DNA of 64,000 bases from Methanofollis aquaemaris (GTDB taxonomy: Archaea; Halobacteriota; Methanomicrobia; Methanomicrobiales; Methanofollaceae): contig NZ_CP036172.1 of NCBI RefSeq assembly GCF_017357525.1, positions 1,586,561 through 1,650,560 of the forward strand, in the 5' to 3' direction. Positions 1,889 to 63,826 of the stretch are shown here, one piece after another (within the stretch, counting starts at the first letter, position 1; each line of letters begins with the position of its first letter). Made by a program: the position numbers and the translations under genes. The notes beneath the pieces were generated by a model. It had not been told where the DNA came from, did no database searches, and worked only from the letters and a program-made list of their open reading frames with translations.

Positions 1889-2797
1889 AACCGGCTCTGT
1901 TGAATACCTCTTCTGGAGTGACCATGAGGGGCTGCTCACACCCTTGCCCATATGTGATGGTTCGGCAGAGGACGGGAACCCCCTCTGAACAATCACCGCC
2001 AGCCTCCTCCCCTATCGCAATCCCGGGGGTTCCAGGGGCAGAGCCCCCGGCGTAAGCGTGCGGGAAGGCACGTCGATCAGAAGATCTTTTGAACAATTTT
2101 CATCGCGTATGCTTGAGCCAGGGGTTCATGCCTGATTCAAAAGAGCCATCAGACCAATATCTCCACAGAAAGAACACCTCCCACTGTTACCTCATGATCA
2201 CCCTAACCCCTGAAGCGTGAAAGGCGGTTGCAACACTTAGTAGCAAGTCACGAACAAAAGACCACCAATAAATGCGCTTGAACGACGAAAATTTTTGACC
2301 GCGAAAAAATCCTCTGTACTAATCTTTGTGCGGGAGGCTGACCGCCCCCTGGTTCCCCACGTGAAGAGAGCGCCGGGGACGCCAACACCCTCTCCATGAT
2401 CTCCCCTCTGCCTTCCCGACCCAATCGCAATCCCAGGGGTCCGGGGGTAGCGCCCCCGGCGCGAGGGTGGGGGAAGGCATGGGATCGGACAAGCCGTCCC
2501 ACAGAAAAACGAAGAAATTTTTGCCACTCTCTCGCACCGGGGGGAGACACCCCGGACCCCCCCCGCAGCGAGGATAGAGGCGGGGCGGCGACGAAGTGAT
2601 GATCCCTCGCTGCCCCACCGTGAAGAGTGTAATCAACAGCCCCCCGGCCAGACATTTGAGGGGTGACTCGCCACTCGATCGAGTTCTCAGTCAAGAAACC
2701 CTGGCTTAAAGAAGATGGGATCGAGCCTATGGAAGTCATGATGATACATTACATGACGGCACCTGGCGGCGGTGACCCTCGGCGCTCTGCGGCGGAC
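1889..2797. repeat. Long intergenic region made of dispersed repeats
   Basis: About 900 bases with no supportable gene between the GerW operon and a convergent methyltransferase. 1910-2060 resembles 12050-12200 over roughly 120 bases ('ggcagaggac', then 'ccctctgaac'). 2093-2150 is a copy of the 'ttttcatcgcgtatgcttga' repeat. 2340-2640 holds GC-rich blocks of the 'ccggcgcgag..ggggaaggc' type. Open frames across it, on both strands, follow the repeats and show no protein-like features. Confidence 0.6.
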
Positions 2798-21062: not shown

Positions 21063-21134
21063 GGGCCCGTAGCTTAGTGGTGGAGCGTCCGGCTCATAAC
21101 CGGACGGCCGTGGGTTCGAATCCCTCCGGGCCCA
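21063..21134 (+). tRNA. tRNA with CAT anticodon (Met or agmatidine Ile2)
   Basis: Acceptor GGGCCCG/CGGGCCC, D stem GCTT/GAGC, anticodon stem TCCGG/CCGGA with CTCATAA loop (anticodon CAT), T stem GTGGG/CCCTC with TTCGAAT loop, discriminator A. The second pair of the T stem is a T-T mismatch. The CAU anticodon alone does not say whether this is elongator Met or an Ile2 tRNA read with a modified C. The 3' 50 bases are copied at 25913-25962 at the far end of an integrated element; CCA not encoded. Confidence 0.9.
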
Positions 21135-21135
21135 T
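21085..21135 (+). repeat. attL-type direct repeat (51 bp, in tRNA gene)
   Basis: The left repeat starts in the D stem at 'gcgtccggctcataaccg' and ends at the T after the discriminator A. It is identical base for base to 25913-25963. The bases on both sides differ (A/T before, G/C after), so the shared block is exactly 51 bases. Confidence 0.85.
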
Positions 21136-21730
21136 GTTATTTTGGATAAATATTGTTTAAAAGCAGTCAAATTCTACATATAACGGTTAAAATACAATAT
21201 TATCCAAATCGGGGCACTTAAATTCCATAATTTTACAGATCTCCATCCCCCTCTCCCGACAATGTGAAAGCGCATATTCTCCTTTTTCCCCCGTATTCCT
21301 TTTCTTTTGTCCTGATATCTCATTTCCTTCTACTTTTCTACTGTCCGTACAGTTCTGTATCTGTCCGGACAGTTTCGGATCGTCCGAACACCTCATGTAA
21401 CGTGGGCCGTGCGTGAGGAGGACTCCATTGAATGATGCGCCACCCGTCCGCTGATATGTCGGCGCTCTTGACCCTCCTCCATACTCTCTGAACCCCAGTA
21501 GAGGAGATCCTCTTTAGGCCTCCGTCCTTGATCCGTCTATTCAGATGTCCTTCTTGCTGGGAGGGAGCGATCTCCCCAACTAACCTCTGGCCTCCATACT
21601 ATCCAAGAGAATACTCCTTCAAAACAAGAGAAATAGAGGAGAAGAGAATAGAAAAGAAGAAATATCCTAGGAGAGGAAAAGGAGAGTTCTCCAAGAGAAA
21701 TAGAAATTACACAGGAGAAAAGAAGAGTAA
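21136..21730. other. Left arm of the element, non-coding, with operator-like dyads and purine-rich tract
   Basis: No gene is well supported. 21340-21387 holds three neighbouring dyads: ACTGTCCGTACAGT (imperfect), CTGTCCGGACAG (perfect, 21361-21372) and TCGGA-TCG-TCCGA (21375-21387), each with GTCCG, spaced 19-20 bases apart. 21610-21770 is almost pure A/G on the plus strand, rich in 'aggagaagag'-like words. A weak 69-codon frame on the minus strand (21187-21396) runs through the dyads and is not called. Confidence 0.5.
21340..21387. promoter_or_regulatory. Three tandem GTCCG dyads, possible operator
   Basis: GTCCG occurs at 21343, 21363 and 21382, each as part of an inverted repeat. A spacing of 19-20 bases, about two helical turns, puts them on one face of the DNA. 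This resembles a multi-site operator or a plasmid iteron-like site of the element. Function inferred. Confidence 0.35.
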
Positions 21731-21778
21731 AAAAGAGAGAAAGTCTCACAGACTTCAGAGAAGAGAACAGACGCCTCT

Positions 21779-22018
21779 ATGGTGAAGAAACAGATCTATG
21801 GATGCGGAAAGGTCAATCCGCTCACGGCGGGGAGAGAGTTCGGCCAGATCGTGGACGGAGCGATCGCGCAGTTCATCTCGCAGTCGGATGAAAAAATCAC
21901 TTTCAAGATCGAGATCGAAGTGGAGGATGAGAAAGATTTTGATGAGAACCTTCAGCAGGGGACACGGTAGAACCGTGCTGTCCTCCACATCAAAAAAGCA
22001 GAGTCTAAAGCGGAATGA
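21779..22018 (+). pseudogene. Remnant of DUF499 ATPase C-terminus with in-frame TAG
   Basis: An open frame of 63 codons (21779-21970) reads IYGCGKVNPLTAGREFGQI, then 'DGAIAQFISQSDEKITFKIE'. It then continues past a TAG (21968-21970) as NRAVLHIKKAESKAE to a TGA at 22016. This resembles the last part of DUF499 proteins (phage-defence associated ATPases, over 900 residues), which end with an 'itleIea..p.Gf....vr.v.eN...L.f' pattern. The TAG stands where a Glu (GAG) before 'eN' would be expected. The body of the gene is absent. Read as a decayed leftover of an earlier defence gene; homology is by eye and not confirmed. Confidence 0.5.
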
Positions 22019-22199
22019 AGAAAATTCTCCATTTTTTCTCCACCTTGTTCAAGATAATGACGATATCCTTGGAGGGATGATAAACGCCCATACAATCCCC
22101 TTCAGGGTAGATGAAAGAGAAAACATCCCCCTCAATACCATCTAAGAAAATCATTGAATTAATGACTTAGATTAAATAAAATCATCGAGATCCAATGGA

Positions 22200-25100
22200 T
22201 TAGTGGAAATCGCTGTTAGAATACAAAATATTCTTAGAGGTATAATTGATATAACCCGCATTAAATTTCGTCTCATCAGAAATTAGAGGCGACTTAATTG
22301 CCAAAAATGACTGCTGCCCCTCTATCCACTGTAATATTAAGTCCCTTTGTTTTTGGGTAAAGTTAATTTCACGAATTAAGTCTTCGACTTCATCGATACA
22401 GAACCCCCTTAGTTTTGCACGGAATATAAACAGAATGGGATCAAGGATTGTATTATCGATGGATCGTATTTTATCAAATATCTGAGATTTATCATAATAA
22501 CTGGCATTAACAGATTTAAACTTGTAGGAGCAAATATATTGTTCATACTCCACCATTGGGGCGATTATGAGGAACAGGTTGAATAAATCATCAGCGGTAT
22601 AATTGATAACATATTTCTGAAAAGCATCCATCATATGTTGGAAATGTTCTGAGAATGGTGAGTTTTGTATTGGTATTGTATTTGTTGACCACGGAACAGG
22701 AATAAGTTGCATCTGCTGGCAAAGATATGAAATGCGACTAAGAACTATACTGGGATCATGAGTATTACAGATCAAATCTGTCAAATTTGAAAAAACGCAA
22801 TCAATAATTGATGAAGTCAATACAGGAGAAGTGCCGTGGATAATATTAACCGAGAACAAAACCCCTGGGCCATATGTTTCAATAATATCATCTAATGGTA
22901 TAATCTGATAATAAACCCCATCCAAGGCATTAAACCGGTTATTTTTACATAGTGAGTAAATTTGTCTTTTATTTTCTTGAAAAACTTCAAATATCAACTT
23001 ATCCAATCCAAGGTGATCTGAAACGATTTTTTTCTCCTTTATCTCATAGTAGAATGAAAAGTAAGGGAGAACCGAAAATACACTTAATGCAGAAGATGCT
23101 CTATCATTTTCACTACAATTTATGCCATTGGATATATACTCAATCAAAGATTTACGAATGGGAATTATATTGACAGTATCTGCGGTCACCAATGGATATA
23201 TAAGCTCATTAATAGGCATGCTTTCATTGAAATAGGATCCATTCTGTTTCGCATCTAGATTCAAGTCAATGCATAAGGCCATACAAGAAAAAACTATGTT
23301 TTTCGTCACATCAGGAGAAGGCGCAATAAACTCAAGAGAACGCACAACAAAGGATAAAAGATTGAATCGAGATTGAAGATTCATTCCTTCACTTGCATCA
23401 AGAATTAAAGACAGCAATTCATTCGCAGCATCTTCTTGATTTCTATTCTGGATTTGGAGAGATAATTGGGCGACTAAATCCCATTCGCCATTACTTATTT
23501 TTGGCAATAGGAAGTTACCCAGATCTTCAGGAGACTTATAATTCCTGACCAAAAAATATGCAGTAAAATATTCTAAAAAGGTTCTATGTGTGAATTGGTA
23601 TAGGTTATCACTGATACCAGGGGAACCCACTTCAGAAAATACCCATGCTCGACCTTTACAAAACTTAACAAATTTCTTTGCAGTTAACAAGGCCATATCA
23701 GGGTCATCATATCTTTTAGGATAGAGATAATTCTCTGTTAATTCTATGAACGTTCTTTCTGGGACACCCGTTTGTAGTTTCTCATTTGAATACACTTCAT
23801 TAGCAATGTACATCAGTGTTGGTCTTAAATGGGCTTCAAAGGAGACATCAGAATCTATTCCTCTTATTTTATCCCACCTCTCAAATAGCAATTCAGAACA
23901 TTTTCCATAGACATCAGGACGATTTTTAGGGATATATCCTTCTCCACGGTATAATTCACACATTAATGATAGCATGAGTGGGTTTGAACGCAAATCCTTC
24001 ACACTAATACTTTCATTTAAGAAAGAAACGACATTTTCAACTATTTCTTTATCATCCGAGTTCAGATTATGTTTGAACCATTTCTCAACATATTCCTTCA
24101 CTTGTTTGTTGTTAAAATCAGAGATATAGTACTTCTTAAACCGATCTTTGCTTAGGGGGGCCTGTTCATATCCTACTTTTCTCGATGTCACAAGTATAGG
24201 AACAGATGGGTATAGATCGCAGAATGACTCTATGTTATCACTAATAGTCCGCCTCTTACTGGTGTCTAATAGTTCATCAAGACCATCAAAAATTACAAAT
24301 GCCCGTCCATTCATCAATAAATATTCAAAAGCTCCAGCAGGGGGTTTTTGTTGATACAAACTTCTTGAGATTTCTTCGATATATTCAAGAATTGAACAAT
24401 GGTTGGACTCGAATTTAGTCCCATAATCACGTAATACTACCAGTATTGGCGTAACATCTCTTCCACCAAGTTGTTTAGATGTAAAACCTCTTCCAAAATC
24501 ATAACACAATTTGTAGGTTAGAGTTGTCTTCCCAGCACCAGGATCACCCAAAACAACCGAACGATATATCAAAGAGACAAAATCCTCACAGGCTATCAAT
24601 TTGCGATTTTCAACATCTGGACTCATTGAATCTAAAAAATTAGGGAAAACATAAAGGTCATCAAGAAGTATTTTTTCTGCGTTTTTGAAGTGTGCTGTGC
24701 TTAAATACTTATAACGTTCAGTAACTTGGCGTCGATATTTCCTTTCAAATTCAAGATATTGTTGCACGGTAGGTTTATCATTGCTTTCAAGTTTTCGAAT
24801 ATTGTAGTTTAAATTCTCTAACTCATCCTGCAACATCCTAAATCTGAGATTTTCCATCATTTCATGCGCGAAAAGACTGCCTCTCCTAATATCCTCCACA
24901 TATACATTTGCGCAACCTGCTATTAATGCATCAAAAAGAGAATCCGAAATTTTGACGATATTGTCTTCGGTTAGATCTAAATGAAGTAACAATAATTTTC
25001 CGAATTCACGACGTATCATATCAATATTCGCGTCATGATCTTTTTTTAGGACTTTTGCAGAAAATATTTGCCTAACAACAGTTTCCACTTCCTGAGATCG

Positions 25101-25286
25101 AAGGAAAACCTCGATCTGCCTTACATCATGCCCATTGTTTGTTTCAATTTTCTCAACAGCAGAACTAACAATATCAGAAAGTTCTCTGTCGGTTTGAAGA
25201 TCTCGTCGAAATTTCCTAGATACTTCACCAAATAATTGGAAGGTAGCATTAGAAATTACACCAATAATAGCCTCAGCAATCACCAC
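22200..25286 (-). CDS. NACHT-domain STAND NTPase, probable defence protein
   Basis: A protein of 1,028 residues. An N-terminal region (about 1-240) of unknown fold, opening with a short hydrophobic stretch (AEAIIGVISNATFQLFGEVS), leads to a NACHT NTPase: Walker A 'VLGDPGAGKTTLTYKLC' (247-254), Walker B 'VIFDGLDELLD' (331-340), then 'ILVTSRKVGYEQ'. About 570-600 carries 'QFTHRTFLEYFTAYFLV', a common NACHT helical signature. The last 400 residues are helical with no recognised repeats and probably sense a target. Starts at GTG with GGGAG upstream. Codon and base use is far more AT-rich than in all neighbours. It is the only large gene of the element, so an antiphage role is likely but inferred. 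Confidence 0.8.
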   Translation of the reverse strand: MVIAEAIIGVISNATFQLFGEVSRKFRRDLQTDRELSDIVSSAVEKIETNNGHDVRQIEVFLRSQEVETVVRQIFSAKVLKKDHDANIDMIRREFGKLLLLHLDLTEDNIVKISDSLFDALIAGCANVYVEDIRRGSLFAHEMMENLRFRMLQDELENLNYNIRKLESNDKPTVQQYLEFERKYRRQVTERYKYLSTAHFKNAEKILLDDLYVFPNFLDSMSPDVENRKLIACEDFVSLIYRSVVLGDPGAGKTTLTYKLCYDFGRGFTSKQLGGRDVTPILVVLRDYGTKFESNHCSILEYIEEISRSLYQQKPPAGAFEYLLMNGRAFVIFDGLDELLDTSKRRTISDNIESFCDLYPSVPILVTSRKVGYEQAPLSKDRFKKYYISDFNNKQVKEYVEKWFKHNLNSDDKEIVENVVSFLNESISVKDLRSNPLMLSLMCELYRGEGYIPKNRPDVYGKCSELLFERWDKIRGIDSDVSFEAHLRPTLMYIANEVYSNEKLQTGVPERTFIELTENYLYPKRYDDPDMALLTAKKFVKFCKGRAWVFSEVGSPGISDNLYQFTHRTFLEYFTAYFLVRNYKSPEDLGNFLLPKISNGEWDLVAQLSLQIQNRNQEDAANELLSLILDASEGMNLQSRFNLLSFVVRSLEFIAPSPDVTKNIVFSCMALCIDLNLDAKQNGSYFNESMPINELIYPLVTADTVNIIPIRKSLIEYISNGINCSENDRASSALSVFSVLPYFSFYYEIKEKKIVSDHLGLDKLIFEVFQENKRQIYSLCKNNRFNALDGVYYQIIPLDDIIETYGPGVLFSVNIIHGTSPVLTSSIIDCVFSNLTDLICNTHDPSIVLSRISYLCQQMQLIPVPWSTNTIPIQNSPFSEHFQHMMDAFQKYVINYTADDLFNLFLIIAPMVEYEQYICSYKFKSVNASYYDKSQIFDKIRSIDNTILDPILFIFRAKLRGFCIDEVEDLIREINFTQKQRDLILQWIEGQQSFLAIKSPLISDETKFNAGYINYTSKNILYSNSDFH

Positions 25287-25912
25287 TCAGATCTCCCTTA
25301 AGATCAATACCAAACCTTCTGTGAGAGCAAATAAAATCCTTTCCTTTTAATAAAATTTTAAAAAGAATTCAAATCATCCTAATCGACAGGAGATAGCATA
25401 ATACGAGATCAAATAGGAACAAAAAAGATCCCCAAAGATTTTGAGATTTATGCTGTTATAAAAAGACCGCAAATACTCTAAAATTAAGAAGGCACGTAAT
25501 ATCTTTATTGGGCTCTGTAGAAACCCTCACCATTTCTAGGTACGAGCGTGATTCAACCGCCTTCCCCCATCTTCTCGCCGGGGGCTAGCACCCCGGACCC
25601 CTGGGATGAAGATAGGGCCGGGAAGGCAAAATCAATCGTCATGAAGAGCGTAATGCCGCCCCTCGCCTATCTTCGCGCGGGGGGACCGGGGGGCGGCCAG
25701 CCCCCCGCAGAGATATTCAGCAAGAGGTTTTCTACAAGGCCCTTTATTGAGCGAATTCGTTTGTTAAACTATAGAAGTGCCATGTTCTTTCATGCTGAGG
25801 AAACCGAAAGGAGCATTCCTCCCGCCTTCTGCATGAATTTTTCCGCGTGTGTTTTTTCGTCTTGATTTATTTCCGATATGGCCTTCTTCTTGAATTATCT
25901 CGCCATTCTGTT
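25287..25912. repeat. Right arm of the element: promoter region, GC-rich repeat blocks, possible ferritin-like scrap
   Basis: 25287-25500 is AT-rich and should hold the NACHT promoter ('aaaggaaaggattttattt' on the minus strand). 25545-25740 carries the same GC-rich dispersed repeat as the chromosome ('ccccggacccctgggatga', 'cgaagatagg'-type). Just inside the right repeat, the minus strand of 25803-25897 reads FKKKAISEINQDEKTHAEKF and so on to a stop, with no start; this has a ferritin or rubrerythrin-like look but is too short to be sure. Confidence 0.4.
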
Positions 25913-25963
25913 GCGTCCGGCTCATAACCGGACGGCCGTGGGTTCGAATCCCTCCGGGCCCAT
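25913..25963 (+). repeat. attR-type direct repeat (51 bp tRNA fragment)
   Basis: A perfect copy of the 3' 50 bases of the CAT tRNA plus one base. It lacks the acceptor 5' strand and the 5' part of the D arm, so it is not a functional tRNA gene. It marks the right end of the element. Confidence 0.85.
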
Positions 25964-25999: not shown

Positions 26000-26839
26000 T
26001 CAGCCAACGGCGTCGTTTCCTTTTTGCTCCTGCAGGTCGCCCCGTCGCCGCCAGAAGAGGTACCCCAGCAGCGCCGAGACCACCGCGAGCCCGAGCCCGA
26101 ACTCGGTCGTGATATAGAGCGTCGCCCCGGCCGGGACGGTCAGAGGGTCGAAGACGCCCTGGATGAGAAGGTTATGGCTGCCATGATACAGCACCGCCGG
26201 CCAGAAACTGCCAGAACGGAGCCTGAGCCAGGCGAGCATGGTGGCGATCCCGACGATGGAGACAGTGAAGCAGAGGAGAGCGTACGAGGTCTGGGTGCCC
26301 GAAGTGTAGAGCCCAACAAGGATGAGCGGATAGTGCCACACGCCCCAGATGAGCCCGGAGAGGAGAGCAGTGCGGGTGAAGGTGGTGCACCGGTACAGCC
26401 CCGGCACCAGCACCCCGCGCCACCCGAGTTCCTCCCCGAGACCCAGAAATATGCTCTGCGGGAGGGCGAGCAACGCCGCACCGACCAGCATAAAGGCGAC
26501 ACCGTCACCCAGGATACTGCCCGGCCCAATGAACCAGACCGGGAGATAGATCACAAGACAGTAGAGAAGCGGGATGAGAAGGGCGAAGAGCAGGTATCGG
26601 AGGGGGCCGGGCGGCCACCCCATCCCCCGCAGGGAACGTTCAAAGACCATCTGGGTGATCAAACCCGCTACGGCCGGCGACCACATCAGGCCGACGACCA
26701 GCGCGGGTTCAAGATCACCGGCGGCGGCGATCAGGTACCAGAAGACCGAACTGAAGGCAAAGACCAGCACCACATAGAGGCCGACTTTGAAGATGGCACG
26801 CCGCCGGGCCGTCTCAGATACAGCATCTCGACGATCCAT
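26000..26839 (-). CDS. CPBP-family intramembrane metalloprotease
   Basis: A protein of 279 residues with about eight membrane helices. The CPBP (Abi, PF02517) motif 1 is 'GLGEELGWRGVL' (two Glu plus Arg), motif 2 holds 'LIWGVWHYPLIL' (His) and motif 3 has 'LYHGSHNLLIQG' (His). In eukaryotes relatives cut prenylated proteins; in archaea the substrate is unknown. A strong GGGAGG lies 4 bases upstream of the ATG at 26839. It follows the integrated element but has host-like base composition. Confidence 0.85.
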   Translation of the reverse strand: MDRRDAVSETARRRAIFKVGLYVVLVFAFSSVFWYLIAAAGDLEPALVVGLMWSPAVAGLITQMVFERSLRGMGWPPGPLRYLLFALLIPLLYCLVIYLPVWFIGPGSILGDGVAFMLVGAALLALPQSIFLGLGEELGWRGVLVPGLYRCTTFTRTALLSGLIWGVWHYPLILVGLYTSGTQTSYALLCFTVSIVGIATMLAWLRLRSGSFWPAVLYHGSHNLLIQGVFDPLTVPAGATLYITTEFGLGLAVVSALLGYLFWRRRGDLQEQKGNDAVG

Positions 26840-50163: not shown

Positions 50164-50409
50164 ATGAAATGTTATGAACTTCTCTGCAAACCATTTCAAG
50201 GCGTTCTTGCCGTCGAAGACCTCAGCCTGGAGGTGCCCTGGGCGGAGTGGGGCCGCCTCATCGAGGTGAGCAAGGCCTGCACCTCCGCGGGCATTCTTGC
50301 ACACGGCTCACTCATCGCCACCGTCGACATCAAGAGCCCCAAAGCAGAACACCCTGACATAGAAGGCGTATTTCTCTCATACCCTCACGCCGCGGAGGAT
50401 GCCGCATGA
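50164..50409 (+). pseudogene. ABC ATPase shrunk by in-frame deletions
   Basis: A frame of 81 codons. Its first 26 residues match residues 1-26 of the full ATPase at 52179. A break follows, then 'EVSKACTSAGILAHG' (full-length residues about 192-206), then 'IATVDI' (about 259-264), then 'AEHPDIEGVFLSY' and the end. Walker A, signature and Walker B are all missing, so it cannot hydrolyse ATP, yet the frame stays open and couples by ATGA to the next permease. Either a decayed gene or a retained mini-protein. Confidence 0.65.
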
Positions 50410-51497
50410 GAACCGAAGGTCTCAGGGTCATCGCCGGCAAGGAGTTCCATGATCATGTCAGGAGCAGACGTTTTCTCAGCCTCCTCGGGATCATGCTCGT
50501 CATCGCCGCCGTCGGCCTGGCCTCGGGCACGGTCCAGTATCACAAAGACCTGAACAACTACAACCAGGCACGTGTAGCGGTCGGCGATGATGAACTTGCA
50601 CAGACCCCACTCATCACGAAACCTTCGCCGCTCTTTGCCTTCTACGAGATGGCACTTCTCCTCTCCTCTCTTGGTGCCGTCACCGGGATCGCGATGGGCT
50701 TCGACCTCGTGACCAGAGAGAAGGAGAGCAAGTCCCTCAAGATCCTTCTCTCCCACCCGATCTATCGCGACGAGGTGATCACCGGCAAGGCCCTCGGTGG
50801 CGCCGCGGCAATCGCCCTCGCAATTCTTCTGTTCGTCGGGGTCTCGTTTGCGGTGCTGCTCGCATCAGGGGTCGTGCCCGATCTTGACGAGTCGATACGG
50901 ATCTTGATCTTCGGACTGCTCTCATTCCTGATGATCGTCTCCTTCTTCGCCCTCGCCCTCTTCTTCTCGACGGTCACGAAGACAAGCGGGAGCGCCCTGG
51001 TTTCCACGCTCATCGTCTTCATCACCCTCTCCTCGGCCACCTATCTGGCCACGTCGAGCGCGGGGATCACCCTCCTCATCGGCGACCCCCCGGAGATGTC
51101 CGGGATAGAGTATCAATACTCCTTCATGACAGGCCCGAACAGCGAGACCGGGATCATGGGCATATCGGACGAAGGGATGGCGCCGGGAGAGTTCGAGGAG
51201 AGGATGGAGGAATATGAAATAGAGTCTAAGGCCTACCAGGGCAAGAGACAGGCGATAGAGGATATGTTCAACCTCATCTCCCCGGACCGAAATTACCAGG
51301 AACTTACCTTCGCGGTGGTCAGACCAGGACTTGTCGCGGCGACCCTCGCTGACGGAGAGATCGTCTCTGAAGACGGCCTCTCCGCACTTTTCACTCTGCT
51401 CGGGAGTCTTGCAAGCAACATCGTCGCCATCCTCGTCTTCCCCGCGGCCTTCTTCGGGCTTTCATGGATACGTTTCGTACGGGAGGACATTCGATGA
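50406..51497 (+). CDS. ABC-2 permease, cassette 1
   Basis: A protein of 363 residues with six membrane helices. Conserved parts across all eight paralogues are present: 'GKEFHDHVRSRRF' at the cytosolic start, 'MGFDLVTREKESKSLKILL' with 'SHPIYRDEVITGKALGG' between helices 2 and 3, and 'FFGLSWIRFVREDIR' at the end. The outside loop after helix 5 is unlike those of the others. Its own ATPase is broken, so it may rely on the ATPase of another cassette. Confidence 0.85.
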   Translation: MRTEGLRVIAGKEFHDHVRSRRFLSLLGIMLVIAAVGLASGTVQYHKDLNNYNQARVAVGDDELAQTPLITKPSPLFAFYEMALLLSSLGAVTGIAMGFDLVTREKESKSLKILLSHPIYRDEVITGKALGGAAAIALAILLFVGVSFAVLLASGVVPDLDESIRILIFGLLSFLMIVSFFALALFFSTVTKTSGSALVSTLIVFITLSSATYLATSSAGITLLIGDPPEMSGIEYQYSFMTGPNSETGIMGISDEGMAPGEFEERMEEYEIESKAYQGKRQAIEDMFNLISPDRNYQELTFAVVRPGLVAATLADGEIVSEDGLSALFTLLGSLASNIVAILVFPAAFFGLSWIRFVREDIR

Positions 51498-51607
51498 GGA
51501 CCGGTGTCCTCAGGATCATCGCCGGCAAGGAGTTCCAAGAGCAGGTATGGCGCCGAAGGATCGGGATCTCTATCAAAGTTCAATACTTTAAACAATGGGC
51601 TGTGTAG
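51494..51607 (+). pseudogene. Permease stub, 37 codons
   Basis: Starts with the 4-base ATGA overlap at the end of the previous permease. It has the first 14 residues of a permease (MRTGVLRIIAGKEF), then unrelated residues up to TAG at 51605. The rest of a permease is absent and a dispersed repeat follows. It shows that cassette 1 once continued into a second permease, as in cassette 3. Confidence 0.75.
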
Positions 51608-52178
51608 AAACCCTCTGGACAGTTATCTTTGACAGGGGGCGTGCTGCCCCCCGCGTCAGGAGAGGCGTGGGGACGGCGACACTCTCTTCATGTTCATTGA
51701 TTTCGCCTTCCCAGCCCAATATTCGTCCCGGGGTCTGGGGGATGCGACTGGAGGGAGCTTGAGAAAATCTCTGATTTTCGATGGAGCCCCCGCGCGATCA
51801 ATGTGGGAAGGCTGTTGGTTCACACGTGTGCCTGGAAGAGGGGAGGGGTTCTACAGAGCTAAACAATGAACATATCCCAGACATCTCTGAGGCCCGGATA
51901 TCCCCTCGAACCGAAGCGCTTCCTTCCAGGAATTCTAAACATATATCTCCCACCGGGGAGCTGGCCGCCCCCGGCGCGAGTGGATAGGGAAGGCGATGGA
52001 TGCATGGGTGCGCGACGAAGAGGCAGGAGTCTCTCAGCCATCATCCATCGCTCGATTCTGTGAGGGCAGGGTCGAGGAGTTTCTGGATGATCTCAAAGTG
52101 TAGAGGATTGTGCCACAAGTGATTTTATAATACAGTCCCAATTGATGACTCAGAGTTACAGAACAGGACGAACTATCT
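51608..52178. repeat. Gap between cassettes 1 and 2, dispersed repeats
   Basis: About 570 bases. 51690-51830 resembles 17185-17400 (with 'gagcccccgcgcgatcaa'). The upstream part has 'gggctgtgtagaaaccctc', as at 25507-25530. The stretch 51860-52060 holds short frames without protein character. The cassette 2 element lies at its end. Confidence 0.55.
52099..52143 (+). promoter_or_regulatory. ABC-cassette upstream element, copy 2
   Basis: Reads 'tgtagaggattgtgccaca' then 'agtgattttataatacagt'. About 32 of 36 bases match copy 1 and its position before the ATPase start is alike. 'AGGATTGTGCCACAA' may be a regulator site and 'TTTTATAATA' the TATA box. Confidence 0.6.
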
Positions 52179-53093
52179 ATGATACGTTGTGACCATCTCT
52201 GCAAGATCTATAATGGCGTTCCCGCCGTCGACGACCTCTGCCTTGAAGTGCCTGAAGGTGAGGTCTTTGGCCTCCTCGGCCCGAACGGCGCCGGTAAGAG
52301 CACCACCATCCTCATGCTCACCGGCCTCATCGAGCCTACGTCAGGCGCATGCTACATCGACGACCTCGAGGTCGCCACCCACCCCATCGAGGTGAAAAAG
52401 AAGATCGGCTACATGCCTGAAGACGTCGGGTTCTACCCCACCCTCACCGCCGAGGAGAACCTCGAGTACTCAGCAAAACTCTATGGCATGGGAAAGGAGC
52501 GCAAAGAGCGGATCAAAGAACTTCTCGCCCTCGTAGGGCTCGAAGGCGTCACCAAGGAGGTCGGGGGGTTCTCGAAGGGGATGAGGCAGCGCCTCGGCAT
52601 CGCCAAGGCCCTCATCAACCACCCGACGGCCATCATCCTCGACGAACCCACCGCAAATCTCGACCCCCAGGGCGTCGCAGACTACCGGAGGATCATCAGG
52701 CAGGTCGCCGACCAGGGCACCACTGTCCTGGTCTCCTCCCACATCCTCTCTGAGGTGAGCAAGGTCTGCACCTCCGCAGGCATCCTGGCCCACGGAAAAC
52801 TCGTCGCACATGGTACCTGGGACGAACTCGCACACATCGGCGGCGATGAGAAGATCGTCATCCACATCGAGACGCGCACCCCCATGCCTGACCTCCAGAG
52901 CCCTGCACTCGTTGCCGCAGAGTTCGCGGAGAACCGACACCGTGCACGACTCGTTGCCACCGTCGACATCAGGGACGAACTCGCCGACGTCCTCGCCGAA
53001 GCGGGGGTTGCGATCAGGAGCCTCGAAGCAGAACACCCCGACATCGAGGACGTATTCCTCTCATATTATCACGCTGAGGAGGATGCCACGTGA
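52179..53093 (+). CDS. ABC exporter ATPase, cassette 2
   Basis: A protein of 304 residues, CcmA/NodI-type. Walker A 'GPNGAGKSTT' (34-43), Q-loop zone 'YMPEDVGFYPTLT' (the usual Gln replaced by Glu), signature 'FSKGMRQRLGIAKAL' (131-145), Walker B 'AIILDEPTANLDPQG' (151-165), switch His in 'LVSSHILSE' (188). About 80 C-terminal residues form an extra domain. It differs from the 56457 ATPase at about ten residues. Its stop overlaps the GTG of the next permease. Confidence 0.92.
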   Translation: MIRCDHLCKIYNGVPAVDDLCLEVPEGEVFGLLGPNGAGKSTTILMLTGLIEPTSGACYIDDLEVATHPIEVKKKIGYMPEDVGFYPTLTAEENLEYSAKLYGMGKERKERIKELLALVGLEGVTKEVGGFSKGMRQRLGIAKALINHPTAIILDEPTANLDPQGVADYRRIIRQVADQGTTVLVSSHILSEVSKVCTSAGILAHGKLVAHGTWDELAHIGGDEKIVIHIETRTPMPDLQSPALVAAEFAENRHRARLVATVDIRDELADVLAEAGVAIRSLEAEHPDIEDVFLSYYHAEEDAT

Positions 53094-54214
53094 GGACCGA
53101 AGGCCTCAGGGTCATCGCCGCAAAGGAGTTCCGCGACCACATCAGGAGCAGGAGGTTCCACATCCTCCTCGCGATCTTCCTGGTCATCGCCGCCGTCGGA
53201 CTCATCGACGGATCAGTACAGTATAATAAGCAGATCGAAGACTACAACGAACGCCTGGCCCAGGCCTCGGACGACCCGATGATGGAGATGGGGCACGGTT
53301 ACTTCGACTGGAAGCCCTCCATCCTCTCAGCCTTCTTCAGGATGTCCATGCTCATCGTCACCGTCGGGATCGTCCTCGGATGTGCAATGGGTTTCGACCT
53401 CATCTCGCGTGAGAAAGAGAGTAAATCCCTGAAGATCCTCCTCTCCCACCCGGTGTACCGCGATGAGGTGATCAACGGCAAGGCCCTCGGGGGCATCGCA
53501 GCCATCGCCCTCGCAATGGGGATCATGCTCGCCCTCTCCTTTGCCGTCATTCTCATCTTCGGGATCGTCCCGAACCTCGACGAGAGTGTACGGATCCTGC
53601 TCTTCGGCGGGCTTTCGTTCCTGCTCATCTTCTCGTACTTCGCGATCGCCCTCTTCATGTCGACGGTCGCAAAGGACAGCAGCAACGCCCTCATCTACAC
53701 CCTCATCGTCTTCATCGTCCTCTCCACCCTCATCCCGGCCATCGCCACCAACGAGAGCGTGATGAACACCGTCATCGGCGAACCGCCGGAATTCCCTGAT
53801 ATGGACAGAGTTTATTACGGCGATACATTCGGCGTCTCAAGTGTCAAGACGTCCTCTTCGACGGATGAGCCAATAGACACCTCAGAGATCGACCGGGCCT
53901 GGGAAGAGTACGAGGAGAAGTCGAGAGCCTACTGGGAGAAGAGACGCGCCTTCACCGACACCTTCAACCTGCTCTCGCCTGCCAGCAACTATCAACAGAT
54001 GGCGATGGCCGTGACCAACCCGCGCTCTGCCATTGCACTCCAGAACACAGGCGGTTATGATCCGGATATGTATGAAGACCTCCCTGAGAGCGGACTTGCG
54101 ATCCTCGCAAGCCTCCTGGGAGTCCTTGCAAAGTACATCATCGCCCTGTTCGTGGTCCCCGCCGCGTTCTTCGGGCTGGCATGGATCAGGTTCATGCGGG
54201 AGGATATCAGATGA
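53090..54214 (+). CDS. ABC-2 permease, cassette 2
   Basis: A protein of 374 residues, six membrane helices. 'GKEFRDHIRSRRFHILLAIF', 'AMGFDLISREKESKSLKILL' and 'SHPVYRDEVINGKALGGIA' as in the family; end 'FFGLAWIRFMREDIR'. Very like the first permease of cassette 3 (57368). The outside loop has 'YEEKSRAYWEKRRAFTDTFN' and 'LLSPASNYQQM', shared in outline by all members. Start GTG overlapping the ATPase; the following exported protein overlaps its stop. Confidence 0.88.
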   Translation: MRTEGLRVIAAKEFRDHIRSRRFHILLAIFLVIAAVGLIDGSVQYNKQIEDYNERLAQASDDPMMEMGHGYFDWKPSILSAFFRMSMLIVTVGIVLGCAMGFDLISREKESKSLKILLSHPVYRDEVINGKALGGIAAIALAMGIMLALSFAVILIFGIVPNLDESVRILLFGGLSFLLIFSYFAIALFMSTVAKDSSNALIYTLIVFIVLSTLIPAIATNESVMNTVIGEPPEFPDMDRVYYGDTFGVSSVKTSSSTDEPIDTSEIDRAWEEYEEKSRAYWEKRRAFTDTFNLLSPASNYQQMAMAVTNPRSAIALQNTGGYDPDMYEDLPESGLAILASLLGVLAKYIIALFVVPAAFFGLAWIRFMREDIR

Positions 54215-55659
54215 AAGAAAGAATTGAAAAGGGGCTCGCAGTTCTCTGCACGGCCCTCATGCTCCTGCCCCTCCTGGTCGCCGCACCGGCGGCGGCCCTG
54301 GATAACCAGGCAGACGGGAAGGTCTCCATCCACTGCGACTTCCCCGGCCAGGTGATCGAAGCCGGAGAGACGGCGACCTTCACCCTCTCAGTGACCAACA
54401 ACGGCAAGACCGATCAGATGAAGATGTGGACCGAGTCCTTTGCCGGGTGCAGGGATTGGGAGATGCGCTATGTCGACGGGAAGACCGAAGTGAACAAAGT
54501 TTCCATCTCGCCGGGCGGATCAAAGAGCGTCACCCTTGAGGTCGAGACCGCGGCCGACACGTCGATCGGCGATTACCCCGTGAAAGCCCGTATCGGCGAC
54601 GGCTCGATCTGGCTCCATGTAGGTATTTCAAAGACCCACACCGGCGAACTCGGCACCCTCGAACTCACCGTCACCGACAAGGACGGCGAGAAGGTGAAGG
54701 GTGCAACCGTCCTGATCTATGAGGACAAACATGCCGAACCTTCCGATAAGGTGATGACCACCGCGGACGGCAAGATCAGCACCGGTCTCCCGCAGGGGAT
54801 CTACGATCTCGTCATCGAGAAGGCCGGATACAAAGGGGCCGAGAAGAAGGACGTCAAGGTGAAGTGCGGGATCACCACCGACGCCGGGACCGTGATGTTG
54901 GAGAAGTCCCCCTACGCGGCCGAGGTCAACATCAAGTCCCCGACCATTACTTCACCGGTTGGAAGGAACGCGATCTTTGAACTGGGTCTGAAGAACGCAG
55001 GTACCGGTGACGACACCTACACTCTCTCAACAAAGGATCTCCCTGAGGGATGGTATGCGCGCTACAAGGAATCAGCCACTGCCTCGGGCGACCTTTCCGA
55101 GATCTTCCTGCGGGCCGGCGAGGAGAAGACCCTCTATCTTGAGGCGATTCCCCCTTACGGTAGCGGCACCGGCGACTACACCTTCCAGGCCTTCATCGGT
55201 TCTTCGGCAGGAGAATACTCCGATGAACTGACCGCAAAACTCCGCGGGAGTTATGAGATGCGGGTCTCGGCCGATCGGTATCGATACGAGACCGACATGG
55301 GTGGCACGGTCAGCTTCGACCTCAAGGTGAGGAACGCAGGCACGGCGGGAGCGTTGACCGGGATCGGCTTTGAAGTGATGGCCCCACAGGGGTGGAGCGC
55401 CACCGTGACCCCGGCCAACATCACAAGCCTCCAGCCCGGAGATCGGGAGACCGTGAAGGTGACGGTGGCACCCCCCTCCAACATTGTCGCCTCAGATTAC
55501 AAGGTCAGCGTCAAGGTGATCTCTGACCAGGGCGAACAGGAAGAAGAGTTCAGAATCGTCGTGAAGGAGCAATCTTTCGCGGCCATCCTCGGGATCCTCC
55601 TGCTGGTCGGGATCGCCGGTGGAGTCTGGTATTACTTCAGGAAATACCAGCGCCGTTGA
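54211..55659 (+). CDS. Exported NEW3-type (COG1470) protein with C-terminal anchor
   Basis: A protein of 482 residues. Signal peptide (about 1-28), three or more beta domains including a carboxypeptidase-regulatory-like fold ('EDKHAEPSDKVMTTADGKIS' and 'GLPQGIYDLVIEKAGYKGAE') and NEW3 repeats ('PVGRNAIFELGLKNAGTGDD', 'NAGTAGALTGIGFEVMAPQG'), then a membrane helix (about 459-478) and a short basic end. COG1470 proteins often follow ABC-2 transporters in archaea and may form the outside part. ATGA overlap with the permease. Confidence 0.82.
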   Translation: MKERIEKGLAVLCTALMLLPLLVAAPAAALDNQADGKVSIHCDFPGQVIEAGETATFTLSVTNNGKTDQMKMWTESFAGCRDWEMRYVDGKTEVNKVSISPGGSKSVTLEVETAADTSIGDYPVKARIGDGSIWLHVGISKTHTGELGTLELTVTDKDGEKVKGATVLIYEDKHAEPSDKVMTTADGKISTGLPQGIYDLVIEKAGYKGAEKKDVKVKCGITTDAGTVMLEKSPYAAEVNIKSPTITSPVGRNAIFELGLKNAGTGDDTYTLSTKDLPEGWYARYKESATASGDLSEIFLRAGEEKTLYLEAIPPYGSGTGDYTFQAFIGSSAGEYSDELTAKLRGSYEMRVSADRYRYETDMGGTVSFDLKVRNAGTAGALTGIGFEVMAPQGWSATVTPANITSLQPGDRETVKVTVAPPSNIVASDYKVSVKVISDQGEQEEEFRIVVKEQSFAAILGILLLVGIAGGVWYYFRKYQRR

Positions 55660-56456
55660 ACATTTGCCCTGGTGAATCTCTTTCAGGGCACGAATGAGGG
55701 GGCTGACCGCCTTCTCCCGTCCCTCGCGCGAAATAAAGCGCATGGGGGACGACAACACCCTCTTCTTGATCTCTCCGGGTCTATGCTTATACGGCTCTTT
55801 AGAATCTGGCATGACCCCCTGGCTCACGCATACAAGATGAAAATTACTGGATTTCTCTGGAGTGAGCGGATCTCTGCTCCCTCTTCATAGCAAGACACCT
55901 CATTGCCGCCCCCGCCTATCCTCTCTCCGTGGGGGTCAGGGGGTGAACCCCCGGCGCGAGATGACGGTGAAGGTTTTGCGATGAGGGCGGCCATTCTGAT
56001 CGGCATGCCTTCCCACACCATCATGCCGGGGGCTCTGCCCCATGACCCCCTGGAGCAAGATAGGGGCGGGAAGGCAGAGAGAAGATCATGAAGACAGGAA
56101 GCGATCCCCCCACTTATCGTGTGGCGAAGGCGGCGAGCGAACAAGGTCTCCACCGATTCTCCGATCTTGAAAAAAGAGAGAAAGCACGCGACGAGAAATT
56201 TTCATCCCACATGCCTGAGCCCAAGGTTCATGAGTGACTCCACAGAGCCCAGAAATTATTCTCCACCTCTTTCTCTCAATTTCACAGAAGCAGGGTGACT
56301 CCCAGACTCAGACTTCCCAAGAGAAATTCTAAAAAATTATTTTTTCTTCTCATCACCCCGTAAAGGATTGCACTGACATGTAGAGGATTGTTACAGAACC
56401 TATTTTATAAAAGAACTCTCATGGATCTTCAAACCAGAATATTGGAGTGAAGAACC
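55660..56456. repeat. Gap between cassettes 2 and 3, dispersed repeats
   Basis: About 800 bases. 55785-55852 (inverted) and 56196-56252 (direct) are copies of the 'ttttcat..gtatgc.tgag' repeat. 55905-55990 matches 120-220 closely ('ccccggcgcgagatgacggtgaag'). 56030-56080 has 'ggctctgccccatgacccc'. No gene. The cassette 3 element lies at the end. Confidence 0.6.
56360..56422 (+). promoter_or_regulatory. ABC-cassette upstream element, copy 3 (with doubled box)
   Basis: Two 20-base units, 'gtaaaggattgcactgaca' at 56360 and 'gtagaggattgttacagaa' at 56380, followed by 'cctattttataaaagaact'. AGGATTG is shared with copies 1 and 2; here it occurs twice at 20-base spacing, which may give stronger or different control of the six-permease operon. 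Confidence 0.55.
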
Positions 56457-57371
56457 ATGATACGTTGCGAACATCTTTGCAAGGTCTACAACGGCGTCCC
56501 GGCCGTCGACGACCTCTGCCTGGAGGTGCCTGAGGGGGAGGTCTTCGGCCTCCTCGGCCCGAACGGCGCCGGTAAGAGCACCACCATCCTCATGCTCACC
56601 GGCCTCATCGAGCCTACGTCGGGCGCCTGTTATATCGACGACCTCGAGGTCGCCACCCACCCCATCGAGGTCAAGAAGAAGATCGGATACATGCCCGAAG
56701 ACGTCGGGTTCTACCCCACCCTCACCGCCGAGGAGAACCTCGAGTACTCCGCAAAACTCTATGGCATGGGAAAGGAACGAAAAGAGCGGATCAAAGAACT
56801 CCTCGAACTCGTCGGCCTCGAGAAGGTCACCAAGGAGGTCGGCGGGTTCTCGAAGGGGATGAGGCAGCGCCTCGGCATCGCCAAGGCCCTCATCAACCAC
56901 CCGACGGCCATCATCCTCGACGAACCCACCGCAAATCTCGACCCCCAGGGCGTCGCAGACTACCGGAGGATCATCAGGCAGGTCGCAGACCAGGGCACCA
57001 CTGTCCTGGTCTCCTCCCACATCCTCTCTGAGGTGAGCAAGGTCTGCACCTCCGCAGGCATCCTGGCCCACGGAAAACTCGTCGCACATGGTACCTGGGA
57101 CGAACTCGCACACATCGGCGGCGATGAGAAGATCGTCATCCACATCGAGACGCGCACCCCCATGCCTGACCTCCAGAGCCCTGCACTCGTTGCCGCGGAG
57201 TTCGCGGAGAACCGACACCGTGCACGACTCGTTGCCACCGTCGACATCAGGGATGAACTCGCAGACACCCTTGCAAGAGCAGGAGTCGCCATCAGGAGCC
57301 TCGAAGCAGAACACCCCGACATCGAGGACGTATTCCTCTCATACTATGAGGCCGGAGAGGGAATGACATGA
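56457..57371 (+). CDS. ABC exporter ATPase, cassette 3
   Basis: A protein of 304 residues, nearly the same as 52179-53093: from about 56880 to 57250 the DNA is almost unchanged, which suggests a recent copy or gene conversion. All ATPase motifs are complete. It is the only ATPase for the six permeases that follow. ATGA overlap with the first permease. Confidence 0.92.
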   Translation: MIRCEHLCKVYNGVPAVDDLCLEVPEGEVFGLLGPNGAGKSTTILMLTGLIEPTSGACYIDDLEVATHPIEVKKKIGYMPEDVGFYPTLTAEENLEYSAKLYGMGKERKERIKELLELVGLEKVTKEVGGFSKGMRQRLGIAKALINHPTAIILDEPTANLDPQGVADYRRIIRQVADQGTTVLVSSHILSEVSKVCTSAGILAHGKLVAHGTWDELAHIGGDEKIVIHIETRTPMPDLQSPALVAAEFAENRHRARLVATVDIRDELADTLARAGVAIRSLEAEHPDIEDVFLSYYEAGEGMT

Positions 57372-58468
57372 GGAGCGGGGGCCTCAGGGTCATCGCCGCC
57401 AAGGAATTCCGTGACCATATCAGGAGCAGGAGGTTTCACATCCTCCTCGCGATCTTCCTGGTCATCGCCGCCGTCGGACTCATCGACGGATCGATCCAGT
57501 ATAACAAGCAGATCGACGAGTACAACGAAAATTTGGCCCAAGCCTCGGACGACGAGATGGTGCCCGGGTACTTCGGGTGGAAGCCCTCCATCCTCTCGGC
57601 CTTCTTCAGGATGTCCATGCTCATCGTCACCGTCGGGGTCGTCCTCGGGTGTGCGATGGGGTTTGACCTGATCTCACGAGAAAAAGAGAGTAAGTCCCTC
57701 AAGATCCTCCTCTCTCATCCGGTGTACCGCGACGAGGTGATCAATGGCAAGGCCCTCGGAGGCATCGCCGCCATCGCCCTCGCGATGGCGATCGTGCTCG
57801 CTCTCTCCTTTGCGATCCTGCTCATCTTCGGGATCGTCCCGGACCTCGACGAGAGTGTACGGATCCTGCTCTTTGGCGGGCTTTCGTTCCTGCTCATCTT
57901 CTCGTACTTCGCGATCTCGCTCTTCATGTCGACAGTCGCGAAAGACAGCAGCAACGCCCTCATCTACACCCTCATCATCTTCATCGTCCTCTCCACCCTC
58001 ATCCCGGCCATCGCCACCAACGAGAGCGTGATGAACGTCGTCATCGGAGAACCCCCAGAATTCAATGGCCCTTCCGGCCCATACGCGGTCTCAAGCTCTT
58101 CGGCAGCCTCTTCGACAGGAGAGGTAGTAGACACTTCAGAGATCGACCGGGCCTGGGAAGAGTACAGGGAGAGGTCGGATGCATACTGGGAGAAGAGACG
58201 TGCCTTCACCGACGCGGTCAACCTGCTCTCTCCCTCCTACAACTATCAGCAGATGGCGATGGCCGTGACTGAACCACGGATCTCCATTGCAGTTCAGAAT
58301 GTCGGCAGTTATTCTCCAGATATCTATGAAGACCTCCCTGAAAGCGGGCTTGCGATCCTCGGGAGTCTCATGGGAGTCCTTGTAAAGAACATCATCGCAC
58401 TCCTCGTGATCCCTGCCGCCTTCTTCGGGCTCGCATGGGTCAGGTTCATGCGGGAGGACATTCGATGA
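57368..58468 (+). CDS. ABC-2 permease 1 of 6, cassette 3
   Basis: A protein of 366 residues, 'DLISREKESKSLK' type, close relative of the cassette 2 permease (53090): membrane parts nearly identical, outside loop different near 'SSSAASSTGEVVDTSEIDRA'. Ends 'FFGLAWVRFMREDIR'. ATGA overlaps at both ends. Confidence 0.88.
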   Translation: MRSGGLRVIAAKEFRDHIRSRRFHILLAIFLVIAAVGLIDGSIQYNKQIDEYNENLAQASDDEMVPGYFGWKPSILSAFFRMSMLIVTVGVVLGCAMGFDLISREKESKSLKILLSHPVYRDEVINGKALGGIAAIALAMAIVLALSFAILLIFGIVPDLDESVRILLFGGLSFLLIFSYFAISLFMSTVAKDSSNALIYTLIIFIVLSTLIPAIATNESVMNVVIGEPPEFNGPSGPYAVSSSSAASSTGEVVDTSEIDRAWEEYRERSDAYWEKRRAFTDAVNLLSPSYNYQQMAMAVTEPRISIAVQNVGSYSPDIYEDLPESGLAILGSLMGVLVKNIIALLVIPAAFFGLAWVRFMREDIR

Positions 58469-59550
58469 GAACTGGTATCCTCAGAATCATCACAGGCAAG
58501 GAACTCCGCGACCAGATCAGGAGCAAGAAATTTCGAACTCTTTTTGCGATCTTGCTTATCATTGCTGTTGCCGGACTGATCGACGGGGCGACCTCGTACC
58601 AGGAGGGCCTTGAACGGTATAATGAGATGCAGGCAGCCGCTTCCGAAGGAGAAGAAGACTTATCATACAGTTATTATGAGGGGAAACCCTCGTTCCTTGG
58701 GGCTTTCAACATAATAGGTTATCTGCTCTCGACGGTCGCGGCAGTCCTCGGGATCGCAATGGGATTTGACCTCATCACTGCGGAGAAGGAGAGCAAATCC
58801 CTCAAGATCCTCCTCTCCCATCCAGTGTACCGCGATGAGGTGATCACCGGCAAGGCCCTTGGTGGCGCCGCAGCCATTGCCCTCGCGATGGGGATCATGC
58901 TCATCGTCTCCCTTGCCCTGATGCTTGTCTTCGGGATCGTCCCGAACTTCGAGGAGACGGTGAGGATTCTGCTCTTCGGCATCATCTCCTTCCTCGGAGT
59001 CTTCACCTTCTTCGCAATCGCCCTCTTCATGTCGACAGTCGCCCGAAACAGCGGGAACGCCCTCATCGGTTCGCTTGCAATCTTCATCGTCCTCGGGATC
59101 TTCCTTCCGTCCCTTGCCGGGAATGGTGCCCTGACCAATGCCCTCTTTGGCGAGCGGCCTGAACCACCCCAGACGAGTGGCCCCTCCACCTTCGCCGACG
59201 TAGAGGAACATAACCGACTCTGGGACGAGTACCAGGAGAAAAATAGAATTTACCAGATGAAAGTGCAGGGCCTTCACGACACGACAGACCTCCTCTCTCC
59301 CACAAGAAACTATATGGAGATGGTGGGGGCGGTGGCGGATCCGCGCGACACGGCGGCAATGGTATCCGGGGCTTTTTACCTGGACTGGGAAGACACCAAG
59401 GAATTTTACGCAACCCTCCCTGACAACGGGCTTGAGATATTCGTCGGACTGCTCGGGTCCCTCGCAAAGAACATCGTCGCCATGCTCGTCGTCCCCGCCG
59501 CCTTCTTTGGGTTGGCGTGGGTACGGTTCGCACGGGAGGACATTCGATGA
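58465..59550 (+). CDS. ABC-2 permease 2 of 6, cassette 3
   Basis: A protein of 361 residues. 'GKELRDQIRSKKFRTLFAIL', 'MGFDLITAEKESKSLKILL' (Thr-Ala in place of Ser-Arg), 'SHPVYRDEVITGKALGG' and 'FFGLAWVRFAREDIR'. The most diverged coupling segment of the six. The outside loop has 'YQEKNRIYQMKVQGLHDTTD' and 'LLSPTRNYMEM', so even the diverged copy keeps the loop pattern. Confidence 0.88.
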   Translation: MRTGILRIITGKELRDQIRSKKFRTLFAILLIIAVAGLIDGATSYQEGLERYNEMQAAASEGEEDLSYSYYEGKPSFLGAFNIIGYLLSTVAAVLGIAMGFDLITAEKESKSLKILLSHPVYRDEVITGKALGGAAAIALAMGIMLIVSLALMLVFGIVPNFEETVRILLFGIISFLGVFTFFAIALFMSTVARNSGNALIGSLAIFIVLGIFLPSLAGNGALTNALFGERPEPPQTSGPSTFADVEEHNRLWDEYQEKNRIYQMKVQGLHDTTDLLSPTRNYMEMVGAVADPRDTAAMVSGAFYLDWEDTKEFYATLPDNGLEIFVGLLGSLAKNIVAMLVVPAAFFGLAWVRFAREDIR

Positions 59551-63806: not shown

Positions 63807-63826
63807 GGGGCACATCTCCCCCATTT

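What the first reader, a model, noticed from the sequence alone, without database searches (positions are those of the whole stretch)
21085..25963. A 4.8-kb element integrated at a CAT tRNA, with no recognisable integrase
A perfect 51-base repeat marks both ends. The element carries a large AT-rich NACHT gene and a broken defence-type gene but no visible recombinase. It resembles a minimal defence island that must be moved by another element's integrase, or a remnant that lost its integrase. It would be a compact satellite-type carrier of an antiphage gene in an archaeon.
Basis: partly seen in the sequence, partly recalled or inferred. Interest (0 to 1): 0.76.

Follow-up and report, generated by a model that had tools for sequence, protein, structure and literature searches.

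The report
Stranded defence element with fossil integrase
In a methanogen chromosome a 4.8-kb piece of foreign DNA carrying one immune-type gene sits at a tRNA gene between the broken ends of its own lost integrase gene; relatives carry other defence systems between the same ends, so such tRNA genes look like sockets where archaeal immune genes are swapped.

Summary
In detail: a perfect 51-bp repeat (21085-21135, 25913-25963), the first copy inside tRNA-Met(CAT), brackets 4.8 kb holding an intact 1028-aa NACHT gene and a fragment of an HmaC-type defence ATPase; no catalytic recombinase is present. But the arms are not integrase-free. The left arm is a dead int(N), the N-terminal part of an SSV-type ('suicidal') archaeal integrase whose attachment site lies inside its own gene; the right arm is probably the first ~35 codons of int(C). 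Relatives show this: the same N-terminal ORF lies at Met, Val, Ala, Asn, Gly and Thr tRNAs in 56 of 232 genomes of the class, and six elements carry both int halves, in the same orientation, at 28-49-bp tRNA repeats. In a sister species the same tRNA-Met holds a tandem array with homologous arms but other cargo: HMA, then Druantia I. The host genome has no SSV-type integrase, so the window element is a non-autonomous, probably stranded, derivative. Movement by another element's integrase is plausible but unshown. It is a new variant of a known kind: compact SSV-type elements with interchangeable defence cargo in methanogens.

The parts
21063..21134 (+). tRNA-Met(CAT), intact; its 3' part (from 21085) is the left attachment site
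   Evidence: ARAGORN, Rfam tRNA 70.4 bits
21085..21135 (+). left attachment repeat (51 bp), from the anticodon stem to one base past the tRNA 3' end
21083..21313 (-). degenerate int(N): N-terminal part of an SSV-type integrase gene reading into the tRNA; start codon lost, 5 in-frame stops
   Evidence: profile A1 hit E 4.5e-10, 1 TGA + 4 TAA; codon alignment with the intact copy of G007
21341..21372 (.). two palindromes CTGTCCGNACAG, 20 bp apart, conserved upstream of int(N) in nearly all related loci; likely operator or arm-type site (function inferred)
   Evidence: alignment of 16 loci; the only exact matches in the window
21314..21685 (.). conserved non-coding leader of the left arm; with the int(N) part it is 83% identical to the left arm of the Druantia element of G007
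21747..21984 (+). 3' remnant of an hmaC gene (open frame 21779-21970), left from an earlier HMA cargo
   Evidence: PADLOC HmaC 7.6e-10; 73.5% DNA identity to hmaC of G007
22200..25286 (-). intact NACHT-domain (STAND ATPase) gene, 1028 aa; candidate defence gene
   Evidence: PF05729 6.5e-13; 34-35% identical homologues in Methanosarcina, 27% in Streptomyces
25819..25912 (-). right arm: probable remnant of the first ~35 codons of int(C) after the attachment site; the catalytic part is absent
   Evidence: homologous to the right arms of the G007 HMA and Druantia elements; the assignment to int(C) is by position and read-through frame, inferred
25913..25963 (+). right attachment repeat (51 bp): displaced 3' fragment of the tRNA gene

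Best explanation
The 4.8-kb segment is a non-autonomous, integrase-dead derivative of an SSV-type ('suicidal integrase') integrative element. SHOWN in relatives: the element family carries its attachment site inside its integrase gene, so that integration into a tRNA 3' half splits the gene into int(N), next to the tRNA, and int(C), at the far repeat; small family members carry defence genes between the halves. SHOWN here: int(N) is dead, the catalytic part of int(C) is gone, an hmaC remnant points to an earlier HMA cargo, and the present cargo is a NACHT gene. INFERRED: an ancestor entered by int-catalysed integration; HMA was deleted and the NACHT gene acquired between conserved ends, as Druantia was in the sister species; the ends still form a plausible attachment pair, so the cargo could be excised or moved only by a related integrase supplied in trans or by homologous recombination between the repeats. 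The NACHT protein most likely acts as a STAND-ATPase sensor that triggers an abortive-type antiviral response (analogy only).
For: Left-arm DNA found 15 further loci in the class; 13 have a tRNA directly upstream (Met, Asn, Val, Ala, Gly) and one begins inside tRNA-Val. The conserved feature is an ORF reading into the tRNA and open through the attachment site. A full-length copy (G074) joins this N-terminus to PF16795, E 1.4e-21. Six elements have int(N) at a tRNA and int(C) at the far repeat, same orientation, repeats of 28-49 bp, sizes 5.6-17.6 kb. int(C) matches the pT26-2 integrase (3e-26), SSV6 integrase (4e-10) and an Archaeoglobus provirus integrase (3e-48). G007 array at the same tRNA: HMA | att | Druantia I, with homologous arms and no catalytic integrase seen in its contigs. 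The host genome has no PF16795. Sites without the element: G003, and G006 where the tRNA is followed directly by the DNA found to the right of the G007 array.
Against: int(N) itself is not recognised by Pfam, and its predicted fold is low confidence (pLDDT 55). The int(C) identity of the 94-bp right arm rests on position only. Whether the integrase-dead form ever moved is undecided: the left arm is less diverged between G000 and G007 than neutral sites (K 0.19 versus 0.36-0.47), but the part next to the tRNA is not (30/110 differences), so constraint on the leader is an alternative. The G007 contigs do not cover the middle of the HMA element. Defence function of this NACHT gene is untested.
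Confidence: 0.85

Rival explanations
1. Trans-mobilised element: the integrase-dead ends are kept because related SSV-type integrases from other elements still excise and insert them, so this is an active non-autonomous passenger (a stronger version of the best explanation).
For: Dead int(N) with a shared stop in G000 and the G007 Druantia element, which also share the shortened right arm, yet they lie in different hosts and slots with different cargo. The right repeat is perfect although it is not part of a working tRNA. Related integrases exist in G001 and G002. Trans excision is documented for SSV2 and pTN3 (PMC8371274).
Against: No PF16795 integrase in the host genome. The integrases of G001 and G002 sit at tRNA-Val, not tRNA-Met. 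Gene conversion from the tRNA could keep the repeat perfect. Divergence does not clearly exceed vertical descent with losses.
Confidence: 0.35
2. Fully stranded remnant: one integration, loss of the integrase, and cargo turnover by ordinary homologous or illegitimate recombination within a fixed chromosomal slot; no further movement (the other version of the best explanation).
For: Dead int(N), missing int(C) catalytic part, hmaC remnant, no integrase in the genome. Integrase loss after integration is known in archaea (PMC8371274).
Against: The NACHT gene is intact while the arms decay. Tandem copies with separate attachment sites in G007 need at least one further integration or duplication.
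Confidence: 0.5
3. The arms are not integrase but a tRNA-linked regulator gene of ribbon-helix-helix type and its operator that happens to lie beside tRNAs.
For: Many orphan int(N) ORFs are open and show dN/dS about 0.28; palindromes precede them.
Against: Fusion to PF16795 in G074, pairing with int(C) and tRNA repeats in six elements, and read-through of the attachment site.
Confidence: 0.05
4. A simple tandem duplication of part of the tRNA gene with unrelated AT-rich genes between.
For: A 51-bp repeat alone could arise by duplication.
Against: Sites without the element, conserved ends with different cargo in G007, and family-wide int(N)/int(C) anatomy.
Confidence: 0.01

Closest known systems
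SSV-type / suicidal integrase elements (SSV1, pTN3, pT26-2 families; PF16795)
   Same: attachment site inside the integrase gene, int split into int(N) and int(C) on integration, tRNA 3'-half target, sites of about 40-50 bp
   Different: here in methanogens, with an N-terminal part that Pfam does not recognise; cargo of the small members is defence genes; in the window element the integrase is dead
Cis-mobilizable elements (CIMEs) of bacteria
   Same: flanked by att sites, no integrase, tandem arrays with different cargo
   Different: derived from an SSV-type element, no conjugative partner seen, mobilisation not shown
Integrase-less integrated elements of archaea (Methanococcales plasmids and others; PMC8371274)
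   Same: integrated element that lost its integrase; tandem integration and module exchange are described
   Different: here the ends of the lost integrase remain and homologous ends bracket three different defence systems
HMA defence system (PADLOC)
   Same: hmaC remnant in the window; large parts of hmaA and hmaC in G007; complete hmaA in G010
   Different: in the window only ~60 codons remain
Bacterial NACHT (bNACHT) antiphage proteins
   Same: single-gene NACHT STAND ATPase
   Different: no PADLOC model hit, only a weak NCBIfam match to EruA; function untested
P4-like and PICI satellites with defence hotspots
   Same: small element whose ends bracket exchangeable defence genes
   Different: no phage-interaction or packaging genes; SSV-type integrase

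Membership tests
SSV-type (suicidal integrase) integrative element | attachment site within the integrase gene; int(N) at the tRNA and int(C) at the far end | tested here: met
   met for the family: 6 paired elements; in the window int(N) is met as a pseudogene, int(C) only as a probable short remnant
SSV-type (suicidal integrase) integrative element | PF16795 catalytic domain present (autonomous element) | tested here: not met
   absent from the window element and from the whole host genome; hence 'derivative of', not 'autonomous member'
SSV-type (suicidal integrase) integrative element | tRNA 3'-half target with a direct repeat of about 40-50 bp | tested here: met
   51 bp perfect
Cis-mobilizable element (CIME) | flanking att sites, no recombinase | tested here: met
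Cis-mobilizable element (CIME) | mobilised by a partner sharing the att site | not testable with these tools
   no reads or cultures; no partner in the genome
Phage satellite (PICI / P4-like) | helper-interference or packaging genes | tested here: not met
   no such gene recognised among the ORFs of the element
HMA defence system | complete hmaA, hmaB, hmaC | tested here: not met
   only the hmaC 3' end in the window; hmaA and hmaC parts in G007
NACHT / STAND ATPase | NACHT domain with Walker A and B motifs | tested here: met
   PF05729 6.5e-13; GDPGAGKT and FDGLDEL stretches, conserved in the alignment
Antiphage NACHT system | protection from phage or virus | not testable with these tools
   needs an experiment

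The most novel reading that the evidence does not exclude
Dead-integrase ends form a lasting 'socket' at tRNA genes of methanogens: the orphan int(N) is kept as a stand-alone DNA-binding regulator on its palindromes, and defence systems (HMA, Druantia, NACHT, restriction) are exchanged between the ends and moved in trans by integrases of kin elements.
Probability: 0.2. Interest if true: 0.75.

Novelty: new variant of a known kind. Interest (0 to 1): 0.55.

Why it matters
It places a NACHT gene, HMA and Druantia on a compact integrative-element chassis in archaea, extends suicidal integrases (which the 2021 review ties mainly to hyperthermophiles) to many methanogens, and gives a simple signature (int(N) ORF plus palindromes beside a tRNA) with which to find and bound archaeal defence cargo precisely. 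It also makes a stated puzzle testable: how elements whose integrase destroys itself on integration keep spreading.

Tried and rejected
Rfam over the element found only the tRNA. Viral contig scans with int(N) and with two int(C) sequences found no relatives, so no virus origin could be assigned. AlphaFold models of NACHT (pLDDT 46.9) and of int(N) (54.9) were too poor for a fold search, so the ribbon-helix-helix reading of int(N) is by eye only. A solved-structure search with int(N) gave one match (9mg8, E 9e-10) whose best stretch did not pass on its own; I did not use it. The two PF00589 integrases of the genome were considered as movers: the 309-aa one has a same-length, equally strong counterpart in G007 and is probably the chromosomal XerA; the 454-aa one has no tRNA-Met-like site near it. 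Horizontal transfer of the dead element, judged by divergence, is suggestive overall but not clean next to the tRNA, so not claimed. PADLOC control on ten flanking genes gave only short weak hits (best 5e-05), against long strong hits in most bounded elements. Of the 73 genomes that match the int(N) profile, 17 match only over the tRNA part (positions about 27-80) and I do not count them; that leaves 56 (counted by hand from the table).

Full report
OBSERVATION. The 51-bp repeat is perfect, not a chance match, and in the whole 2.75-Mb genome a 44-bp part of it occurs only at these two places. The tRNA-Met gene 21063-21134 is intact; the second copy, 25913-25963, is a displaced 3' fragment of it. 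The interior is AT-rich and holds a 1028-aa NACHT ORF and the last ~60 codons of an HmaC-type ATPase. Six-frame search of the genome finds only two Phage_integrase genes, 0.77 Mb and 1.09 Mb away, and no SSV-type (PF16795) domain at all.

WHAT THE ARMS ARE. The left arm (21136-21780), searched in 232 genomes of the class, hit 15 further loci besides those of G000 and G007. When I then looked for tRNAs, 13 of these had one directly upstream (Met, Asn, Val, Ala, Gly) and one contig begins inside tRNA-Val. Alignment shows a conserved small ORF reading towards and into the tRNA, preceded by palindromes CTGTCCGNACAG 20 bp apart. In intact copies the frame stays open through the tRNA 3' half. A profile of eight such ORFs matches 73 of 232 genomes; 17 of these match only over the tRNA part, so 56 genomes carry the N-terminal part itself (my count from that table). 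The window's own arm matches as a pseudogene with five stops (E 4.5e-10). In the codon alignment with the intact copy of G007 the start codon is lost, and one stop codon and a second stop position are shared with the Druantia element of G007.

PROOF THAT THIS IS INT(N). In G074 the same N-terminus is fused to the SSV-type catalytic domain (396 aa from its start codon, PF16795 E 1.4e-21). In G092, G093, G030, G036, G023 and G001 the N-terminal ORF sits at a tRNA, and a PF16795 gene lies 5.6-17.6 kb away in the same orientation and starts at a second copy of the tRNA 3' half (repeats of 28-49 bp). That is the published anatomy of SSV-type or 'suicidal' integrases, whose gene contains its own attachment site and is split on integration (PMC8371274). 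The catalytic halves match the integrases of pT26-2, pTN3, SSV viruses and Archaeoglobus proviruses. So the window's left arm is a fossil int(N). The right arm (25819-25912) reads on from the attachment site and is homologous to the right arms of two G007 elements; I infer that it is the first ~35 codons of int(C), cut off before the catalytic part, but this rests on position only.

CARGO EXCHANGE. In the sister species G007 the same tRNA-Met carries left arm - hmaA (contig L027), and, on contig L026, hmaC 3' part - right arm - attachment site - left arm - hmaA fragment with a stop - Druantia type I genes - right arm. A third contig (L025) carries a further attachment site and the right chromosomal flank; its element end differs from that of the Druantia element, so at least one more element is likely. 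The middle of the HMA element is not in these contigs, so the order of the contigs is inferred. The window element has the hmaC remnant and NACHT instead. Thus HMA was the earlier cargo of both derived elements and was replaced by different defence genes between homologous ends. In G010 hmaA with its own int(N) stands at tRNA-Val. Other bounded small elements carry a type IV restriction enzyme, a candidate defence ATPase (PDC-S59), an AlbA-like protein (by eye; weak PADLOC hits), a type II restriction-modification pair with int(C) (5.6 kb) and an Mrr-like nuclease with int(C) (6.1 kb, same genus, tRNA-Val); two of them (L110, L122) show no clear defence gene. Ten flanking chromosomal genes gave only short weak PADLOC hits. 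The sample is small and not random.

EMPTY SITES. G003 and G006 lack the element. In G006 the tRNA is followed directly by the DNA that lies to the right of the G007 array. The window's own right flank (a CPBP protease gene) has no match in the G003 and G006 stretches compared, so for the window itself the empty site is only approximate.

CAN IT STILL MOVE? Undecided. For: two integrase-dead elements that share a stop codon and the shortened right arm sit in two species with different cargo; the right repeat is perfect although nothing obliges it to be; related integrases excise split elements in trans in Sulfolobus and Thermococcus (PMC8371274); intact ones occur in G001 and G002. Against: none in this genome; and the test by divergence is not clean: the left arm differs by K 0.19 between G000 and G007 against 0.36 for the intergenic DNA upstream and 0.47 for four-fold sites, but the 110 bp next to the tRNA differ as much as the outside, so constraint on the leader could explain the rest. 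Orphan int(N) ORFs in other genomes are often open, with dN/dS about 0.28, which hints at a retained function, although part of that signal may predate the loss of int(C).

FUNCTION OF THE CARGO. The NACHT protein has a mainly helical predicted N-terminus and C-terminus around the ATPase; the model is too poor for more. Homologues stand in Methanosarcina and Streptomyces. By analogy with bacterial NACHT proteins it probably senses infection and triggers cell arrest or death; untested.

LIMITS. Genomes are one per species and several are fragmented; G007 is 81% complete in 360 contigs. Literature was searched only in open papers; I found no description of this family with defence cargo, which is not proof of absence.

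Noticed in passing
window 50395-63808: Tandem array of repeated ~1.1-kb units (five to eight copies, 60-90% alike) at the right end of the window; the shared 3' ends read like the ends of permease-type membrane genes that have been duplicated.
   Followed up: no
window 2010-2478, 51648-51972, 52179-52478, 56007-56756 and 25505-25741: A GC-rich interspersed repeat shared with other loci of the genus; one copy lies inside the element near its right end.
   Followed up: no
window 26000-26839: CPBP-family protease gene directly right of the right repeat; no match in the G003 and G006 stretches compared.
   Followed up: partly
L063 (G010:C51): Contig begins in tRNA-Val, then int(N), a 211-aa ORF, a decayed second attachment site and int(N), then complete hmaA: a decayed tandem.
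   Followed up: partly
L111 (G154): int(N), attachment site and the start of int(C) are in one open frame at an inner repeat, as expected when tandem elements rebuild a chimeric integrase; int(C) is cut before the catalytic part.
   Followed up: partly
L070 (G075, tRNA-Ala) and L064 (G073, tRNA-Asn): Very short bounded units of 107 and 530 bp beside the tRNA; the 530-bp one holds little besides int(N).
   Followed up: no
L039 (G000:C1 near 520123): 454-aa PF00589 integrase of the host genome with a small ORF of RHH/coiled-coil look beside it and no nearby matching tRNA.
   Followed up: no
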